From Polytrichum commune (lineage: Eukaryota; Streptophyta; Polytrichopsida; Polytrichales; Polytrichaceae): a stretch of 64,000 nucleotides of DNA. The notes below the pieces were generated by a model. The model was not told where the DNA came from, ran no database searches, and saw nothing but the letters and a program-made list of their open reading frames with translations. Both the position numbers and the translations under genes were made by a program. The stretch lies in the NCBI GenBank assembly GCA_950295325.1, contig OX485807.1:12799001-12863000 (forward strand), given 5' to 3'. Within the stretch, counting starts at the first letter, position 1. Every line of letters starts with the position of its first letter. This document shows positions 5,081 through 62,127 of this stretch, one piece after another.

Positions 5081-7218
5081 TCAATCCTCGGGGACCACTT
5101 CCCATTCCTGGTCGTCTGGATCCATCCATTCCCACAATTCCTCTGCCCAGTCTTCCTCCATCCATGCATTCTCCCCATCTTCACCTCCAAGCATAAAAAT
5201 ATACTTCAAGCCCTCCCCAATGAGAATGAAGTCGGCCTCCACAACTCTCAAATCAAGAATCTTGATCATCCTACAAAATTCCGGAGCACACAGGATAGGT
5301 TGTCAAAGGTTGAGGTTATATGGATAGTTGTGTGTACATTCAAGAGAGGATGGGTTAGAAACTGATTCTCAGGTGAGGCAATGACATTGAACGTCAAATG
5401 GTAGTCAGTACTTTCAGAGTAGTTACATAGGTGCAGATTGTCAGGCACAAAAAGGTGTGAACGGAAAACCGGGATGTGTACTTGAGCATATTGTCAGTTG
5501 CAGCTTCTTGCAGATGGAGACCACAGAATGGTAAGGGGAAGCTTTTGATCTCCACTCTTATTTTTTTAGCCTTATTTTGATGTCAAAATAAAAACTACAA
5601 AATCGTAAGCGTATCTTATGTAGCTTAATTGTCGGAAATTAGGATGATCCACAAATTACTAAAATGCAGTACTGGAAGCATGAAACGCTCTAAACACAAA
5701 GCCATATCGGTGAATTCCACACACCTTTTCAAAGGATGATAAATGTGTGCGTGTAATTCGTATTTTCTCATCAGAATCACCGTGCCCTTCTTGACCATTG
5801 AGTTCTTGACCTTCTCCGTCAGTTCAACCGGAAATATGGCGTGTTGGAGCTCTTTCCCGTCAGTAAGGAGGCAACGGAATTGCTCTGTATTAGTGAACAC
5901 TGAACGAATTGTCCATATGTCATATATCTGTTGATAGGAAACGCACATAATCAGCACGACCGTATCCTGGAACGGAATTGTTGAAGTTATGAATTATCGA
6001 AGAGGTAGGGAAATTTACTGGCTGCCAGCATTTCAAAACAGGTTTGCCATGATATAATATTATTCTGAACTACACTGCAGTAGGTAATGACATGCGCACG
6101 CGTAGTTCAAGCTTATATGAAGTTCATGCCATTGGCGCATGACCATTGACAACAAGTCACGCACAGTGCAAGCGCTGTATCCCTTGCAACGTGGTAAACT
6201 ACGTCACGAGGCCGTCTGTTGTAAGAAACTACGAGTCGGCATATAATCAATTCAGTTACTGGCGATGATGAAGTTTTTGCAGTGGAAAAGAACCAAATGG
6301 CTCATTTTATGTATAGCCACGATGAGCTACGTAATGAACATGGGCTTTGAAGAGACATGTACATATATCTATACATCCCATTGAGGAAAAATACACATAA
6401 TGATGATCCCTTGCAACTGGAACTCATTCATAGGAAGCTCGCAGTATAATAAATTCTTAACAGATTTACGATATTATACCACGTTACGAACATCTGCAGT
6501 AAAGTCCTTACTAGAGCATATAGTTCTCATAAATTTCGCACTGTAGTTCGTTAGGTGCGTCTATAACGACTATTTCTCCAATATAGAGAAACTGCACACC
6601 ATGATATAACCTGCTTGTAAAGTAAACTAGTGGTTTAGGAACCTTATTCTAGAAGCTCTGGACAGAGTTCCTACGTTAAATTCATGATCAGTTTCAGGAT
6701 GCTTGGCTTTGCAGCCACATAATTCCCTGTATTGGAGCGGAACTTGAGGCGCGTCCATGAGGTTTTATTTCCAATTCAGGCAAACTGCAGACCATGATAC
6801 CTTCTTAGAACTTGTGCTAATTCTCTAGGGAGCTCAATCCAGAAATTCTAGACAGAGTTGGGATCATACACCATCTTGGAATTATCAGTTTTAGGATGAT
6901 TCCCTCAGGAACATTACTCCCTGCAGTTGAGCGGTACTCGAGGCCGTTCAATAAAGTCTCCGCGCTGTAAAATTTCGCAGATGCGATAAATGAGTGCACA
7001 AGAATTAAGGAACATATACACGCACTTCGACGTGCATAACTTACTCGATCACTTCGAACAACCAAAAAAGAAATAAACCTCCAGACCTGAACGACTGGGG
7101 GAGAGAACTCGTCCGGGTCAAAGATTGGCCAGATGATGCAAGACAGTGGATCTATCATGTTTCTGATTATCTGCTCCTTCTCCTTCTCTTCCTCCTTGCT
7201 CACTACTGGCAAGCCCAT
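5081..7218 (-). CDS. RPA70N-like OB-fold protein, 3 exons, 187 aa
   Basis: Three exons join in frame: 7218-7087 (44 codons, start ATG in an ACCATGG context, donor CAG/GTCTGG), 5966-5725 (acceptor TTCCAG, donor AAAAG/GTGTGT, phase 2) and 5270-5081 (acceptor TTTTGTAG, stop TGA). The product resembles the N-terminal OB domain of the replication protein A large subunit. Residues 73-84 (QFRCLLTDGKEL) match the strand pair of that domain, 102-114 (VKKGTVILMRKYE) match its lysine- and glycine-containing turn, and 126-136 (MIKILDLRVVE) match its last strand. It then ends in an acidic tail rich in E, D and W (residues 145-187). RPA1 itself is over 600 aa with three more DNA-binding folds, none of which is present here. 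In RPA this domain binds checkpoint and repair proteins; a role in DNA metabolism is inferred only. Exon joins are predicted by eye; a pseudogene cannot be excluded. Confidence 0.6.
6590..6960. repeat. Diverged tandem duplication in intron 1 of the OB-fold gene
   Basis: Two units of about 190 bp start near 6595 and 6783. Both run through GCA(C/G)ACCATGATA, then GACAGAGTT, then ATCAGTTT(C/T)AGGATG, then TGGAGCGG or TGAGCGG and CGAGGC. A fainter third unit may begin near 6045. Confidence 0.6.
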
Positions 7219-37110: not shown

Positions 37111-37336
37111 CAAAAATCTACCCAGACACTGGTAGAAAGACATGCTCAGGGCAATCCAAAGACTGCGAGAAGTGAGAACTATTAAAGAGCTGAAAAGCAA
37201 GAAATGGTGAACAAGCTTTTATTTATGTTGCACAAAGTTAAGGCAACATGACTTTTCTAAATTTCTGTTAATTCAGTATAGAATTTCACAGCCAGCTCCC
37301 TGCATGTAACAGGGTTCCACCAGAGCTCATATTATT

Positions 37337-37715
37337 GATCCTTATAGTAATCTAGGTGGTGATACTTGATCATCCAGAAAACAGTTCATTGTAAACCATG
37401 ATATTTGATAGTTGTTGAAATACACAAGTGCAAATAAAAGGGTCATGACTTATCAACCCAATCTGCACACGGCTTCAATGGTAGGGCCGGATCTTCAAAT
37501 TCCAATTGCGCTCGACGAAGTTATCGATCCTTTTAGTAGTCTAGTTGGTGATACTTGATAATCCAGAACACAGTTTATTGTAAACCATGATATTTGATAG
37601 TTGTTGATAAACACAAGTGCAAATAAAAGGGTCATAACTTATCAACCCAATCTGCACTCAGCTTCATTGGTAGGGCCGGATCTTCAAGTCCGGATTGCGC
37701 TCAAAGAAGTTGGCT
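37337..37715. repeat. Tandem duplication at the 3' end of the amine oxidase gene
   Basis: Two adjacent units of about 180 bp, 37337-37515 and 37518-37710, are roughly 90 percent alike by eye. They share AACCATGATATTTGATAGTT, GTGCAAATAAAAGGGTCAT, ACTTATCAACCCAATCTGCA and GGTAGGGCCGGATCTTCAA. The duplicated part covers the last codons, the stop and the start of the 3' UTR. Confidence 0.85.
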
Positions 37716-49779: not shown

Positions 49780-51640
49780 TAATAGTTGGAATCATGCAAA
49801 GCAATGACGGCTTACTCAAGAGTTCAAATTTCATAATTGAAAGTTCAATAGATTATTCGGGCATCATAGAACATAAATGACTTTGCTTGGTAAAATATAA
49901 CATTTGATAGTTATAGCATTGCTTAACTCCAAGGATTAACACATACTAATTGGGATTATCAATTATCAATGTACTTAGACTACACCATTCATAGTATTTA
50001 ATGTCACATGCATAATAATGTCACTCACCCTATTTTGAGTCATATGCTAGGTTACACTAATGATCAACAACTTCATCAATAGTGGCATCTTATGGCACTT
50101 GGCATTCAAGTGCACTCTCTAATATATTGGCATCATGTGACGTACTTAGATTAAAATACTTAATGTTGGATTATGCAAGAAAGAAAGACTAACCATATTT
50201 TGTTGTACTTAGCATGTGAGTAGATTAGAGTCAGACAACTCCAAAGAAAGAAATAGATTAGAGAACCCAAGAGAATGGTGCACAAGGGTTAGACAACCCA
50301 TGATGGAATTGTGCAATGGACTTAGTCAACTCCCAATCAAAGATCTTAGTGTTGGAGTTAGACAACTCCAACTGGAAGATATGAATTGCAGTTAGACAAC
50401 TCCCAGCAGATGGATATTATTCATTGGAGCCATACAACTTTGAATGAATAAATCTAGTTGGAATTAGACAATTCCAACTACAAAAAAAATGTACGAATGA
50501 TCTAGTTGGAATTAGACGGTTCCAACTAGAATAAATTATCACGTTCCTCTTTTACGCAAGAATAGCGCAAGCATGAATGCACATGAGACATTTTCAAACC
50601 TTTTTACTTTACAAAAAGATTTACAACTTAAGCACAATATTGTGATTGCTATGAGCTTGAACCACCCAACCATAGGAGAGACACAAGACAATCCTCTCTC
50701 CTACCCCAAGCTTTCTCTTATATCCCAAAGGCACTCCTAGTCTTATTCATCGTTATCTATAGTATCTATGAGATACTTGTAGAAATCTCAAGTATTACTA
50801 AATTTAGATTCAAGCTTCTTTATCTATATACATAGATCATTTCACCGTGTGATATTTTCTCATCTTTTGGCTCAATCACAATCCTCTAATTGGAATTGTT
50901 TAATTCTCACTTTATGTATTCATCCATTCTTCTAACTGGAATTGTCTAATTCCAACTTCATCCAATCATCCATTCTTCTAGTTGGAATTGTCTAGTTCCA
51001 ACTAGATTTATTAATTGAGACATATCTAGCTTCAATGAATAATATCCATCCGTTGGAAGCTACCTAACTCCAATTCAAATATTCTAGTTGGAGTTGACTA
51101 ACTCCAAGACAAAGATCTTCCAAAGGGAGGTGTCTAACTCCAATGCAAGGATCTTTCGATCGGGAGATGTCTAACTCCACTGCACAATTCCTCTATGGGT
51201 TGTCTAGCCCTTATGCACCATCCTCTGTTGGGTTGTTTGACCCAATTTTATTGTTTGAAATTGTCTAACTTCAATCACCATCTGCTCATATGCTAAGTAC
51301 AATAAAATATGATTAGTTTTTCTTTCTTGCATAATCCAACATTAAGTCTTTTAATCTAGGTACATCACACATGAGTATGCTCAATACATGTTATAAGGTG
51401 CATGCCTATGTTACACGATGGTCTAGAAATTGACTAAATTGTACACAAATGACACTTGGCATTAGTATGCTCAATAATATCTTCTCTATGCATAATAAAA
51501 CACAGAACTATCATCTCAAAGATCCCAATGTGCTACGCTAAATGTCAAAATGCAAACATTTTTTATTTTATAAATACTTATGCTGACAAATAGTATCATG
51601 TTGGCAATTAGCGGGTGTAACATATCGAATGGTTGTACAC
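49780..51640 (-). repeat. Dispersed repeat R6, copy interrupted by a foldback element
   Basis: The parts 49780-50135 and 51370-51640 together match 22150-22680 in reverse orientation. They include GATCAACAACTTCATCA and AGTATCATGTTGGCAATTAG. The 1.2-kb insert lies between the CATACTCATG and CCAA words that are contiguous at 22450-22460. Confidence 0.75.
50136..51369. mobile_element. Foldback element with iterated short palindromes, 1234 bp
   Basis: Ends are inverted: TGTGACGTACTTAGATTAAA on the left and TGTGATGTACCTAGATTAAA on the minus strand at the right. The flanks CATCA and CATGA may be a 5-bp target duplication with one change. Each arm, about 400 bp, is an array of short palindromic units such as TTGGAATTAGACAATTCCAA and TTGGAGTTAGACAACTCCAA. 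No open frame is seen. The uninterrupted R6 copy at 22150 gives an empty site, so this is a real insertion. Confidence 0.8.
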
Positions 51641-57460: not shown

Positions 57461-57719
57461 TCCCTCCACATGCAAAAAGTATTTGTTAAGGTTATGGCAA
57501 CTCCTAAAATATCCCAGCAATTGATTTAGTGTACATATGCAGATAACGAGGCATAGGATGATAATCAAGATGATAGCGAGAATGAATCACATCGTAGGCA
57601 AGATGTTTGAATGTGTGTGTGTTGTTTTCATTATATGACTTTCTTTGAATTTAAACAACCTTCGGGATTAAGTAAATCCTTCCACACCTAGGTCTGAGCT
57701 TGTATTATTGCCTATAAGT

Positions 57720-58000
57720 ACTAGCAAAATGTTGTTTATATTGGAGTTAATTTTCCATGGTGACATGTATTGTTGTGTTAAGTACTCAATTATAGAATAT
57801 CAATATGAGACCTTAAAAACCTTTCATCAAAAGTAAAGGTTTAAAGCAAATGGTTCAATATGGTTCAAAACATAAATTTGTTAATCTTAAATTTTTTGAA
57901 GTTGTAATTTTTTTCATATTCCTTGAATTCATTATAAACTTGAGGTCAACATAATTTATTGGCGTAAATCCATCAATGTGATATAATGTTATCATATTTT
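57720..58000 (+). repeat. Dispersed repeat R2, copy 3
   Basis: Shares AGCAAAATGTTGTTTA, AATTATAGAATATCAATATG and ATTCATTATAAACTTGAGG words with 2760-3010. Confidence 0.6.
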
Positions 58001-58199
58001 AAACAAGTTTGAGTGACAATTCTTTGTTCAATGTCACCTACTTTTTTACCTCTAACACCATCTTCTAGTATACTTTGTGAACATAAGTTTTCTTGACTTT
58101 TGAAACGTTTATTGTTTTATTTTACAAAATTTAAAGTTAGTTTATATTAGTTTTGAATTAATTCCACTTTAGCCTTGACATGTATCGGGAGTTGTTCAC

Positions 58200-59300
58200 T
58201 ATACCATGCTTGCACCCCTATGTCCTCATGTTTGTTCAGGGTATAGGCGATTATACCTTGGTCTTAAGTCATTTAACATGTATATGTGAAATAAATATGA
58301 ACCCCAACACCTTGGTCTTAAATTGAAATTAGCCACAACACCCATTAATGATACATTGTTTTGCATCATTGCATACAAATGTTTTCTTTGATACCACGTA
58401 CGAACTAATGTGAGTGTAAGAATTGGTATTGTTTGAGTCATTACCGTACATAATATACATGAGGTACTAAAAAATGTTTTCTCTCACATATAGTACATAA
58501 AGAAGGCTATTAGATTTTTTTTGAAGTAAATGTTGATGTATTCAAGGGGGCCCTAAGTTCTAGAGAAAAAATTGACAATATTCATTTTAATTCAACCCAT
58601 AACTAGGACAATAGATGTGCTACTTTCATGGCGTCTAGGCGCTTAAATTTTGTGTATTTATTAATACAATTATGTATAGGTGTATATAGGTGGGTAGATT
58701 AAACATGTTGGATGGTAGGGTGGTGGTCAATGTAATTGTAATATTAAATGCAAGATGACATAAGATTACATGATATTGTAGTGAATATCATTACATTGTA
58801 TGTAAAACAATAAATATATTCTATTTTAATTTTGAATATATATTTATATTTATTTGATGTACTACAGTATTGTTGTTGTTGTGGTCGATTTTTCCATGAT
58901 TCTATAATTTTTGTCTACTAATTCTACAATGAATTTTTAATAATGGGCATTTCAATACTACAAACCACCTCTCAATAATGTATAATGCTCATATATTATT
59001 AGCCAATAGATGCCTTTTGCTTTTGTCATTATGTGGACTCATGGTCTATGGATGTTGTCCACCATGAATACACGTTCCATTATAAGGATGACACATGGGA
59101 TGTAGAAATCTTAGGTTTTTATTTTTAGGACATAGTTGGTGGATAGTATCCTATGTCGAAAAATGGATCCAAGGGAAAACGATTACTACTTAAGGGGACA
59201 TCCCCTCACCAAGGGACTCTTTTTGCATCTCAAATGTGGGTTAAGCTCTCAAGACCCTTGTAATGTGTTGGGTTTTTATTTTATGCATGTATAGATCCTA
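58200..59300. other. Intergenic, no gene seen
   Basis: AT-rich flank of the palindrome array without recognisable features. Confidence 0.4.
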
Positions 59301-59323
59301 TTATGCCGCCGCAAATAACGGAA

Positions 59324-60511
59324 GTTTACGGACGCGCGTCCGTAAACCTCAAACCTCTTGGTGCATTGAATTTTTATTGCTTTGAACATTTTAGTTGAGC
59401 TAGTGATGAGGTACAGAGGTTTACGGACACGCGTCCGTAAACATGCATACCTCTAGTATCATGGTTCGGTATGGCACCTAAACTGATATCATGACCATGT
59501 GTCATGTAGAATAAGACAACGAGATTGTAGTGTTATGGAAGTATACGGACGCGCGTCTGTAAACTTTAAACCTCTTGGTGCATTGAATTTCTATTGCTTT
59601 GAGCATTAATTTTCAGTTGAGCTAGTGATGAGGTACAAAGGTTTACGGACATGCGTCCGTAAACATGGATACCTCTAGTGTCATGGTTCGGTATGACACC
59701 TAAACTTACATCATGACCATGTGCCATGTAGACTATGACAACGAAATTATAGTGTCATGGAAGTTTACGGACGCGCGTCCATAAACCTCAAACCTCTTGG
59801 TGCATTGAATCTCTATTGCTTTGAGCATGTCCGTTGAGCTAGTAATGAGGTACAAAGGTTTATGGACGCGCGTCCGTAAACATGCATACCTTTGGTGCTA
59901 TAGTTTTGTATGACACCTAAAATGACATCATGACCATATGCCATGTAAAGTATGGCAAGGAGACTATAGTGTCATGGAAATTTACGGAAGCACGTCTGTG
60001 AACGTAGAACCTCTTGGCGAATTGAACCTCTAATGCCTTGAGCCTTGTACCCCCAAATCTACATCACGTCATTAAACCTACTTGCGTCTCGTAACCTACA
60101 TTACCCTATATATCATAGTACAAAAATTTGACATTGTTAAAACACAGTAGGAATCGCGTATGTTATTCTCTTCAAATTCGTATTGTTGTAAGGCTTGGGT
60201 ATACATGTAAATGGCGCATGAACCTCTTGGTTCCCTAAACCTCTTTGTCTTTTGACAACACTAATTTTTAACATACGGATGTTTACGGACACGCATCCGT
60301 AAACCTATGTTGTATAGTTTGTCAAAGCCTTTACGTTTGACACTGACCTCTCTGACCACAATGAGATTTGCAGATGTGCGTCCATAAACCTTTGGTGTTT
60401 TTGTTGTCTGAACCTTTGCGCCGACTATTAACAGACAAATGTATCCAGATGTACGTATGCTTACACTAATAATGTTGTTAAATGGAGGTATACGGACGCG
60501 CGTTCGTATAC
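59324..60511. repeat. Tandem array of about 220-bp units, each with two GC-rich palindromes
   Basis: The 24-bp palindrome has the core ACGGACGCGCGTCCGT flanked by GTTT and AAAC. It starts at 59324, 59419, 59541, 59641, 59763, 59858 and 59980; more scattered, diverged copies start at 60281, 60365 and 60488. Spacings alternate between about 95-100 and 120 bp, so a unit of about 220 bp is repeated three and a half times. Between sites the spacers are conserved: CCTCTTGGTGCATTGAAT after odd sites, and CATACCTCTAGT then CATGACCATGTG after even sites. The palindromes contrast strongly with the AT-rich surroundings. Confidence 0.93.
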
Positions 60512-60591
60512 CAATATGTCTTTGTTTCCACGCCCTGAAAGCCACTATTGCCCACATTGTGTTTCATTAATAATAAGCGTTAGGACTATCC

Positions 60592-61083
60592 ATGAAATTT
60601 ATTGAATGGGATATTTTGACATACTTTTCATTTGGCTCTCTTGTAGTGGCCATGGATTCCAACGCCGGTGATAGTGCGTTTGAGTTGTCTTCGGAAGCGT
60701 CAAGCTATGGTAGCGACTTTGAAGCTGTCGTGAAATATGAAACTACAATTGGTGTTGCCAATGAAGAGGATGAATTTCTTCCACCATGTGAGGGTTATTC
60801 ACGGGAACAGTGGGTTGATTTTGATGTTGTCCTAGTCCTTGGTTGTGGCGTTCCCGTGGCTGATGGTGTTTGTAGGAACTCGAATCCTAATGATTGTATT
60901 GATGCAAATTCCTTTGGGAAGGAAGATGTTAGGGTGTGCCTCCAACTCTACACGTGCAACTTGACAATTGTGCCAAGGACAACAAAGGTCGATACATGTT
61001 TTTTTTTTGTCATTGGTTGTAGCCAAGGATATTTTCAAAGAAGTGTTTGTGTCTTTTTTTATGGTTGGTCATACGCACGATGA
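60592..61083 (+). CDS. Unrecognised 163-aa frame beside the palindrome array
   Basis: The frame is open for 163 codons. A second ATG at 60652 in a GGCCATGGA context gives a 143-aa product and is the better start. The N-terminal third is acidic and serine-rich (ELSSEASSYGSDFEA), followed by EEDEFLPPCEGYSREQW. The last third is cysteine- and phenylalanine-rich and less protein-like, so the true coding part may end at an intron near 60990. No family is recognised. Acidic N-termini of this style occur in plant transposon-encoded proteins, but no other evidence supports that. Confidence 0.35.
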   Translation: MKFIEWDILTYFSFGSLVVAMDSNAGDSAFELSSEASSYGSDFEAVVKYETTIGVANEEDEFLPPCEGYSREQWVDFDVVLVLGCGVPVADGVCRNSNPNDCIDANSFGKEDVRVCLQLYTCNLTIVPRTTKVDTCFFFVIGCSQGYFQRSVCVFFYGWSYAR

Positions 61084-61279
61084 TATTGATGTTTTATTTG
61101 GATGTTAGATGCTTCATTTGATTGATTCACACGGATAAATAATAACAAGTTTCTAAAGATAAAAAATAATCGAGAAGATTCTACGCACACCCGCGTAGTA
61201 ACCTCTTCTTTGTATCCGCCTATAAATTATTCATGCTTTATCACTAGCTCAATTTGGGATAGCACCAGTCAATGTAACC

Positions 61280-61350
61280 AACCCGATTCGAACCCAGGTT
61301 GATCCAGACCTAATACCAACCTCTTACACAACTCACATCCACAGGTGGAT
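61280..61350 (-). repeat. Possible tRNA-derived (SINE-like) promoter sequence
   Basis: On the minus strand, GTGTAAGAGGTTGG (A-box-like) is followed about 25 nt later by GGGTTCGAATCGGG (B-box-like). A proper acceptor stem and anticodon arm could not be folded, so this is not called a tRNA gene. Confidence 0.25.
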
Positions 61351-62127
61351 GTCTTGAAACCTAGTAGCTACCTACATGTTGACTATTTCTAATATCTAAC
61401 TTCCTTGCTTTTGTAGATTGTGGGTCTTAATTCAACCCGTGAGCATGACCCGGACATATTAAATGTGTGAAAGATTAGACATCAATAGTTTGTCATGTGT
61501 ACGATAGTCGATATTGTAAAGTCGATAGTCTATATTATAGAAATTTTATAGATTATAATTATATTGCATGATTGTATTACTTTATGGACGTGGAATCCAA
61601 CTTCTCATGCACTATCAAATGTTTTTTATATGTTGTTTTACGGATGTGAAATCCAAAACTATATAATATTGCAGATGCTAATTTGCAAATTCTTATTAAC
61701 ATTGTCAAATTATTTTAAGTATTAATGCGTTTGGGATGTGCCGTTCAATTCAACCATAATTGGATAAGACCATTATGTTTGGGATACGCATCCAAGAGTC
61801 TATGATATAAAAATAAATGGTTATTTATCGATTCGTTCAAAAATACAAAATAATTGTGAATTTGTGTCATTGAAATATTGTGTTCGGCATAGTTTTGATT
61901 ATCATCTATATATTTACTATATTTAGAAACATATATATTCATCACATATGGATTTTTAAACATAATGTTGCCATTGTTCCCTATGTTCCCGATGTTCCGT
62001 ACGTTCACAATATTCGCATCCGAAACTATGGGTCCAATTTATTTTGAGACTTTCCAAAGTCTCCGATTAAAGAATATAGTGTTATTAACCACAATCAATT
62101 TTTTGTGTGCCAATTATGTCTCATGCT

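What the first reader, a model, noticed from the sequence alone, without database searches (positions are those of the whole stretch)
59324..60511. Tandem array built from paired GC-rich 24-bp palindromes
Ten copies of a palindrome with core ACGGACGCGCGTCCGT occur in 1.2 kb of AT-rich DNA, at alternating spacings of about 97 and 121 bp. The palindromes vary less than a freely drifting CpG-rich site should, and changes such as GTTTAC to GTATAC at 60488 are matched on the other side, so the symmetry itself may be under selection. This could be a satellite, a clustered binding site for a dimeric protein, or the ends of nested small transposons. Function is inference; the repeat and symmetry are directly visible.
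Basis: partly seen in the sequence, partly recalled or inferred. Interest (0 to 1): 0.75.

Follow-up and report, generated by a model that had tools for sequence, protein, structure and literature searches.

The report
Palindrome arrays of a giant transposon
The palindromes are the decayed control region of a 17-kb jumping gene that is abundant in this plant (probably moss) genome, and each related jumping-gene family examined carries its own version of the palindrome, which suggests a private switch read by a protein the element itself encodes.

Summary
Window 57651-62083 is a decayed, truncated copy of a 17.35-kb DNA transposon with AACACTATATTCGTTA terminal inverted repeats and 4-bp target duplications (4 of 4 copies with both ends read). 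The palindrome is not a transposon end. It lies inside: upstream of the DUF7869 gene (presumed transposase), upstream of a second large gene, and in that gene's introns 1-3. Sixty-seven of 68 listed exact sites lie within 12 kb of an element gene.

All four other DUF7869 families sampled have their own palindrome, one similar to the focal one and three quite different; in three of the four it was found at equivalent places. Exact sites genome-wide: TTTACGGACGNNCGTCCGTAAA 1147, TTTACGAACGNNCGTTCGTAAA 2909, TTTGGGTCGNNCGACCCAAA 9731, controls 0. So sites change together across an element, as expected for a site read by a fast-evolving element-encoded factor. The second gene is the best candidate: weak ParB/KorB-like signals plus a CTD-phosphatase-like domain. 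Layout and evolution closely parallel the VANDAL/VANC anti-silencing system of Arabidopsis, in an unrelated transposon. Binding, expression and methylation are untested. Symmetry is selected, or kept up by mutation, across the family; the window's ten sites alone do not show it.

The parts
57651..62083 (-). Decayed, internally deleted relic of the left ~6.7 kb of the 17.35-kb transposon (80-88% identical, outside the array, to C1:36951047-36968396); no match to the gene 2 part was found in the window
   Evidence: blastn of the window against element pieces
62056..62083 (-). Terminal inverted repeat of the element (AACACTATATTC..., 95% identical to intact copies over 65 bp)
60577..61109 (+). 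Broken remnant of gene 1 (DUF7869 gene): 77% identical to residues 1-122 of the exon-1 frame, then joined to a piece of exon 2
   Evidence: tblastn, blastn; intact copies carry PF25273 at 2.4e-40; the remnant itself has no Pfam hit of note
59320..60043 (.). Tandem array of 217-bp units (3.3 copies), each full unit with two palindromes
   Evidence: TRF
59324..59347 (.). Palindrome 1, perfect
59419..59442 (.). Palindrome 2, 1 mismatch
59541..59564 (.). Palindrome 3, 2 mismatches
59641..59664 (.). Palindrome 4, 2 mismatches
59763..59786 (.). Palindrome 5, 1 mismatch
59858..59881 (.). Palindrome 6, 1 mismatch
59980..60003 (.). Palindrome 7, 5 mismatches
60281..60304 (.). Palindrome 8, 2 mismatches
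60366..60389 (.). Palindrome 9, 6 mismatches
60488..60511 (.). Palindrome 10 with symmetric TAT/ATA change; the corresponding site has it in two other copies too
57651..59302 (-). Remnant of the stretch between arrays 1 and 2 of the element (element positions about 5106-6750)

Best explanation
Shown: the array is 'array 1' of a relic of a large DNA transposon with terminal inverted repeats. In intact copies it lies just upstream of gene 1 (DUF7869), a second array lies just upstream of gene 2, and further palindromes lie in introns 1-3 of gene 2. Related families have the same layout but a different palindrome. Inferred: the palindromes are family-specific operators bound by a protein that the element encodes, most likely the gene 2 product (ParB/KorB-like domain; intron-split; with a CTD-phosphatase-like domain). 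Binding at the two promoters and in the introns would keep the element's own chromatin open, or otherwise control its genes, in the way VANC proteins act on VANDAL transposons. Family specificity would limit the effect to the element's own kind. Tandem duplication changes the arrays quickly while the site is kept. The window copy shows no gene 2, has a broken gene 1, and is dead.
For: Element ends, 4-bp duplications and near-identical copies. Exact-site counts of 1147, 2909 and 9731 for three non-overlapping patterns, 0 in each reversed control. Co-location of 67 of 68 listed exact focal sites with a gene 1 or gene 2 match; the zones cover 2.0% of that stretch. Own palindrome in 4 of 4 other DUF7869 families sampled. 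Palindromes at equivalent intron positions, beginning 5-18 nt after the splice donor of intron 1 in 6 of 6 copies from three families. Palindromes kept better than the rest of the introns: intron 1, 66 of 70 against 208 of 291 columns; intron 2, 139 of 163 against 273 of 425, three pairs summed. Gene 2 homology reaches the CACGGGTG family (hhalign 93% and 98%). Weak signals that agree on the ParB fold: PHROG ParB-like partition protein in 4 of 8 members, best 0.02; GmrSD_N 0.098 and DUF6551 0.12, one member each; DGQHR 0.41, one member; Foldseek top two hits the two ~208-residue chains of the KorB entry 8qa9, probability 0.99, E 0.044 and 0.047. NIF phosphatase domain at 4e-13 and 1e-14 in two families. 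VANDAL21 motifs lie in tandem repeats in introns of VANC21 and VANB21 and upstream of VANA21 (PMC5735166, passages read).
Against: No binding, expression or methylation data. The ParB assignment rests on sub-threshold hits and a model of mean pLDDT 54, and unrelated families score as well or better: YEATS 0.015, an unknown PHROG 0.0036, an ATP synthase subunit 0.15, Cas1 0.4 in a PDB profile search. No convincing helix-turn-helix was found, and the exon 2 model (43.5) is unusable. Outer bases of the palindrome covary although their sequence is free, which independent recognition of two half-sites does not predict. In some families one site lies in coding exon 3. The fifth family (GTGAGGCAT) shows gene 2 only by short motifs. 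Gene 1 differs between families too (65-83% in the two nearest, 34-50% in the others), so it is not excluded as the binder.
Confidence: 0.6

Rival explanations
1. The palindromes are binding sites of the presumed transposase itself (gene 1, DUF7869): internal enhancers that help synapse the element's ends.
For: They belong to the element and are conserved, and gene 1 also differs between families. Subterminal repeat arrays bound by transposase or cofactor are known in other plant transposons (recalled).
Against: Array 1 lies 3.9-4.9 kb from the left end and array 2 about 7 kb from the right end, with further sites in introns. The terminal repeat is shared by the focal and TTTGGGTCG families while the palindrome is not (one end seen in the latter). 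In the two nearest families gene 1 is 65-83% identical and gene 2 exon 1 only 33-43%.
Confidence: 0.15
2. The palindromes work as structure, not as a protein site: DNA cruciforms, or RNA hairpins in the pre-mRNA next to the splice donor. Alternatively their symmetry is only kept up by template-switch repair.
For: The three outermost bases covary with free sequence: 66, 52 and 44 of 101 complementary against 38.9, 37.3 and 32.7 in shuffles, mainly in the focal family. Some arms are 16-21 bp long. Sites sit 5-18 nt from the splice donor.
Against: No clear sense-strand G-U bias: 21 G-U against 17 A-C pairs in the core overall (array 2 14:6, introns 2:6, array 1 5:5). The core sequence is nearly fixed within a family, and the central two bases are not paired more often than by chance.
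Confidence: 0.17
3. A plain satellite: tandem duplication of a fragment that happened to hold a palindrome, with no function.
For: Arrays are tandem and vary in unit length and number between copies (95, 135, 53 bp).
Against: The same palindrome sits in unlike spacers, singly or in small groups in introns, and is replaced in concert in other families.
Confidence: 0.04
4. The sites are recognised by a host transcription factor that the element borrows.
For: Would also explain promoter and intron positions.
Against: Families in one genome use different palindromes, and of 68 listed exact focal sites only 1 had no detected element gene within 12 kb; that one stands in a group of three.
Confidence: 0.04

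Closest known systems
VANDAL transposons and their VANC anti-silencing proteins (Arabidopsis)
   Same: Family-specific short motif in fast-changing tandem repeats, placed upstream of the transposase gene and in introns of the other genes; motif differs between related families (PMC5735166, PMC10398659, passages read).
   Different: Unrelated transposon: DUF7869 gene, inverted repeats, 4-bp duplications. Motif is a ~24-bp palindrome. Second protein looks weakly ParB-like with a CTD-phosphatase-like domain, with no sign of VANC. Binding and demethylation untested.
KorB and its operators on plasmid RK2 (ParB family)
   Same: Sites near several promoters of one mobile element; top Foldseek match of the gene 2 exon-1 model is the KorB entry 8qa9; KorB acts as a long-range silencer (PMC11790492, passages read).
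   Different: Bacterial plasmid. Here the similarity is weak, the motif is DGQHS/HGQHT, no convincing helix-turn-helix was found, and sites are arrayed and intronic in a eukaryote.
CACTA (En/Spm) transposons with TnpA sites (recalled)
   Same: Terminal repeat contains CACTA; a second gene beside the presumed transposase.
   Different: Repeat begins AACACTA with 4-bp duplications; no CACTA transposase domain in the Pfam scans; arrays are internal, not subterminal.

Membership tests
VANDAL/VANC | Mutator-like transposase (VANA) | tested here: not met
   Gene 1 exon 2 matches only PF25273 DUF7869, exon 1 nothing
VANDAL/VANC | VANC protein family member in the element (Pfam domain of VANC recalled, DUF1985) | tested here: not met
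   No such Pfam hit for the gene 2 exons scanned
VANDAL/VANC | Long target duplication without clear inverted repeats (recalled) | tested here: not met
   4-bp duplications ATGG, TATT, ACTA, TAAG; clear inverted repeats
VANDAL/VANC | Family-specific short motif in tandem repeats of non-coding parts, upstream of transposase gene and in introns | tested here: met
   exception: one site in coding exon 3
VANDAL/VANC | Own protein binds the motif and removes DNA methylation | not testable with these tools
   Needs EMSA or ChIP and bisulfite data
ParB/KorB operator system | ParB-CTPase fold in the binding protein | tested here: inconclusive
   Best profile hits E 0.02-0.41 to ParB-fold families, beside unrelated hits of like strength; Foldseek KorB entry E 0.044 on a pLDDT 54 model
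ParB/KorB operator system | Helix-turn-helix DNA-binding domain after the ParB domain | tested here: inconclusive
   PHROG HTH hit only E 0.14 in exon 2; exon 2 model unusable
ParB/KorB operator system | Palindromic sites near several promoters of the element | tested here: met
   Arrays just 5' of gene 1 and gene 2; promoters themselves not mapped
ParB/KorB operator system | CTP (or other NTP) binding and clamp loading at the site | not testable with these tools
   Needs biochemistry
CACTA (En/Spm) | Terminus starting CACTA with 3-bp duplication (recalled) | tested here: not met
   AACACTA, 4-bp duplications in 4 of 4
Sola superfamily | 4-bp target duplication (recalled) | tested here: met
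Sola superfamily | Sola-type transposase | not tested
   No reference profile at hand
   Palindromes are internal; termini are the AACACTATATTCGTTA repeats

The most novel reading that the evidence does not exclude
A eukaryotic transposon superfamily has built its own operator system, like bacterial ParB-parS or KorB-OB. A ParB-fold protein fused to a CTD-phosphatase-like domain loads at family-specific palindromes in promoters and introns and spreads over the element to keep it transcribed. Repeated switching of palindrome and protein has split the superfamily into private, non-cross-reacting families, convergent with VANDAL/VANC.
Probability: 0.3. Interest if true: 0.92.

Novelty: new variant of a known kind. 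Interest (0 to 1): 0.74.

Why it matters
VANDAL/VANC is the described example, of those I found, of transposon families with private, fast-changing control sites. Here an unrelated, very abundant transposon group shows the same logic: site arrays upstream of the presumed transposase gene, site arrays and intron sites around the second gene, and concerted replacement of the site in each family. That would make sequence-specific self-regulation or anti-silencing a recurrent outcome of the arms race, not an Arabidopsis oddity. Several families in one genome, each with its own palindrome and its own version of gene 2, also make the question of how a DNA-binding protein and dozens of its sites change together directly testable by swapping proteins and sites.

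Tried and rejected
Nested small transposons: rejected, termini lie elsewhere. Pure satellite: rejected by the concerted palindrome replacement. RNA hairpin in the sense strand: no clear G-U bias, 21 against 17 overall. Symmetry from the window alone: no excess. Literature: the palindrome core strings in full text, 0 papers; DUF7869, 0 papers; a Sola/TSD/moss term search listed one general paper; a Sola/Academ/Novosib search listed 8 of 50 and a moss/palindromic/introns search 10 of 17, with no listed title about this system; a ParB/transposon term search listed 10 of 26, none by title about eukaryotic transposons with ParB. For some searches I saw listings only, except that passages of PMC12704722 were read. 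That this system is not in print rests on these six searches of open PMC papers only. Viral-contig scan with the gene 2 profile: 46 pattern matches, 0 confirmed relatives. PDB sequence searches with gene 1 of L020, gene 2 exon 1 and its profile gave nothing credible. Exon 2 structure: pLDDT 43.5, matches not credible. A methyltransferase-like motif (VFGGTKFMYAALMLG) at the exon 2/3 junction resembles SAM motif I from memory only; no profile supported it.

Counting correction: the mismatch-tolerant counts 5214 and 7916 overlap, because the focal and TTTACGAACG palindromes differ at only two specified bases; the exact counts do not overlap and are the ones used. The 13,499 allows 2 mismatches; 9731 are exact.

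Sampling limits: of the DUF7869 families (150 scored of 1491 candidates) I read four besides the focal one. Gene 1 counts come from 95 scored of 1734 candidates, gene 2 from 95 of 1056 and 140 of 984. The 68 sites are the distinct places of the capped list, all on C1. In one search, 168 sites from 39 regions that I chose were reduced to 101 at 80% identity; the CACGGGTG and GTGAGGCAT families and the window were not in that set. In one search the 3' ends of intron 2 of L016 and of intron 1 of L014 and L023 were set by eye and are a little off. L014 (two stops) was left out of alignment A1; L029 and L032 are partial rows.

Full report
Observation. The spacer is a 217-bp tandem unit x3.3.

What the array belongs to. 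The genome (G000, 408 Mb, 64 contigs) has 1147 exact copies of TTTACGGACGNNCGTCCGTAAA, 0 for the reversed pattern. With 3 mismatches allowed on the 22-bp palindrome there are 5214 against 2, but that count also takes in sites of the similar TTTACGAACG family. The listed sites come in groups a few kb apart. Cutting out copies at four places showed one element with the same sharp left end in four of four. The full element C1:36951047-36968396 is 17,350 bp. Its ends are inverted repeats AACACTATATTCGTTA..., and the bases outside are 4-bp direct duplications in 4 of 4 copies with both ends read: ATGG, TATT, ACTA and TAAG in a subfamily copy. Long aligned pieces of the copies are about 99% identical. 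Of 95 gene 1 matches scored (1734 candidates), 47 are at least 97% identical to the query and 43 of those have no internal stop. The element has been active recently. The window's stretch 57651-62083 is an internally deleted left part of it, 80-88% identical outside the array, in reverse orientation, ending in the terminal repeat at 62083.

Anatomy. Gene 1 runs from array 1 towards the left end and carries PF25273 (DUF7869, 2.4e-40), a domain of unknown function; 'transposase' is my inference. Gene 2 starts just after array 2. Its coding pieces are joined by GT...AG introns (sequence reading; no transcript data): exon 1 of 430 codons with IVDGQHSVMAAKAL, exon 2 of 440, exon 3 of 472, and exon 4 with an NLI-interacting-factor (CTD-phosphatase-like) domain at 4.4e-13. 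Palindromes lie 5' of gene 1 (array 1, mostly 95-bp units), 5' of gene 2 (array 2, mostly 135-bp units), in introns 1, 2 and 3 of gene 2, and one in coding exon 3. Of the 68 distinct exact sites in the capped list (all on C1, 25.4-40.4 Mb), 67 lie within 12 kb of a gene 1 or gene 2 match from the equally capped lists; these zones cover 2.0% of that stretch. The remaining one stands in a group of three sites.

The key result. I cut out four other DUF7869 families. All four have palindrome arrays near the DUF7869 gene, each with its own palindrome: TTTACGAACGNNCGTTCGTAAA (L021, also L014), which is close to the focal one, and three quite different ones, GTTTGGGTCGNNCGACCCAAAC (L019/L023), CACGGGTGNNCACCCGTG (L020/L024/L033) and GGTGAGGCAYATGCCYCACC (L022/L025). 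In the first three, gene 2 relatives are found: exon 1 43% and 33% identical, and hhalign 93%/98% with E 2.6e-7/1.5e-12 for the third. The family's own palindrome is in array 2 and at intron positions; intron 3 was not read in the TTTACGAACG family, and exon ends in the CACGGGTG family are inferred. In the fourth, gene 2 is suggested only by VDGQH and GRDFSF motifs downstream of its array; the profile comparison is weak (15%), and its introns were not read. The TTTACGAACG and TTTGGGTCG palindromes have 2909 and 9731 exact sites genome-wide, 0 in controls. The terminal repeat AACACTATATTCGTTA is also found beyond gene 2 of the TTTGGGTCG element (one end only). In these two nearest families gene 1 is 65-83% identical to the focal one and gene 2 exon 1 33-43%; in the two others gene 1 is 34-50%. 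So site and gene 2 change faster than ends and gene 1, and the sites of an element change together.

Site conservation. Between subfamilies of the focal element, palindrome columns in introns are more conserved than the rest: intron 1, 66 of 70 against 208 of 291 aligned columns summed over three pairs; intron 2, 139 of 163 against 273 of 425 (one intron end set roughly). The first palindrome of intron 1 begins 5-18 nt after the donor in 6 of 6 copies.

Symmetry. In 51 unique sites of three intact focal-family copies and the window, 515 of 612 position pairs are complementary against 486.7 (sd 4.6) in shuffles, 0 of 5000 reaching it. In 101 dereplicated sites of three families the outermost three pairs covary although their sequence varies (66, 52, 44 of 101 against 38.9, 37.3, 32.7), as do two inner pairs (offsets 4 and 5: 93 and 98 against 88.0 and 93.6); farther out there is little. 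The outer signal is strong in the focal family at all three positions, in the TTTGGGTCG family at the first only, and not significant in the TTTACGAACG family. The centre does not pair more often than chance (43 against 50.8). Shuffles keep column make-up but not relatedness, and sites within an array share ancestry. Core G-U against A-C mismatches are 21 to 17 overall (14:6 in array 2, 2:6 in introns, 5:5 in array 1), so nothing clear points to an RNA hairpin. The free-sequence covariation is not what two independent half-site contacts would give. It fits a structural need, or repair copying one arm from the other.

Who binds. No direct evidence. Gene 2 is preferred because it varies with the palindrome and because several weak signals agree on the ParB fold at its GQH motif: PHROG ParB-like partition protein in 4 of 8 members (best 0.02), GmrSD_N 0.098 and DUF6551 0.12, DGQHR 0.41, and the top two Foldseek hits, chains of the KorB entry 8qa9, at probability 0.99, E 0.044 and 0.047 on a model of mean pLDDT 54. 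None passes a usual threshold, and unrelated families score in the same range (YEATS 0.015, an unknown PHROG 0.0036, an ATP synthase subunit 0.15, Cas1 0.4). That DGQHR and GmrSD_N are ParB-fold families is recalled; [quoted passage not shown] The same paper surveys this fold in bacteria, archaea, phages and eukaryotes; a text search of it for 'transpos' gave 0 occurrences.

Mechanism. The closest described logic is VANDAL/VANC: in passages read of PMC5735166, VANC21 binds YAGTATTAY in tandem repeats that lie in introns of VANC21 and VANB21 and upstream of VANA21. VANC6 targets have different motifs, and repeat units diverge together. PMC10398659 (passages) places both silencing and anti-silencing in these non-coding parts. 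The present system matches the cis side of this in an unrelated transposon. I therefore favour family-specific self-regulation, probably anti-silencing. A KorB-like repressor role (PMC11790492, passages) or a transposition role remains possible. The gene 2 phosphatase-like domain hints at an effect on RNA polymerase II, by inference only.

Organism. The best PDB match of an Lhcb gene, apart from one 620-residue chain, is 8htu, then 7xqp, ahead of the other chains listed. From memory these are Physcomitrium structures, and the lower ones seed plants and green algae. Seven large contigs (C1-C7) appear in the hit lists. A moss is likely; the species is not established.

Window copy. No gene 2 sequence was found in the window and gene 1 is broken. 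Its CpGs are decaying, to TG or CA in 14 of 15 losses in the palindromes, which fits methylated dead DNA. The function, if any, is in the intact copies, not here.

Noticed in passing
window 50200-51260: A second palindrome-like motif (about TTGGARTTNGACAAYTCCAA) repeats on two facing flanks, as in a non-autonomous fold-back element; possibly another family with its own site.
   Followed up: partly
window 37332-37711: 189-bp tandem duplication, 90% matches, no indels.
   Followed up: no
L003:3605 (C1:37103605): A near-identical element copy begins abruptly beside a palindrome unit of array 1, and the 3.6 kb read to its left does not match the gene 1 side; a gene 1 copy lies about 18 kb away, so a nested insertion is as possible as a break in the array.
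   Followed up: partly
L002:4905-4928, L016:6216, L018:8060, L033:1105: One palindrome lies in coding exon 3 of gene 2, in the focal family and in the CACGGGTG family with that family's own sequence.
   Followed up: partly
L020:7361: A perfect CACGGGTG-family palindrome lies between two open frames of gene 1 (7293 and 7388), perhaps in a gene 1 intron.
   Followed up: no
L016:4800 (C1:37233800): Intron-2 palindrome with about 21-bp arms, much longer than the core.
   Followed up: no
L002:5375-5420: The NIF phosphatase-like domain has DLNGVL where the usual motif (recalled) is DLDxTL, so catalysis may be altered.
   Followed up: no
G000 C5:1751760-1846160: Fourteen chlorophyll a/b-binding genes with the same profile score stand within 95 kb.
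   Followed up: no
L014:1073-5717 (C7:25096073-25100717): TTTACGAACG-family element sequence lies directly next to the end of a focal-family element.
   Followed up: no
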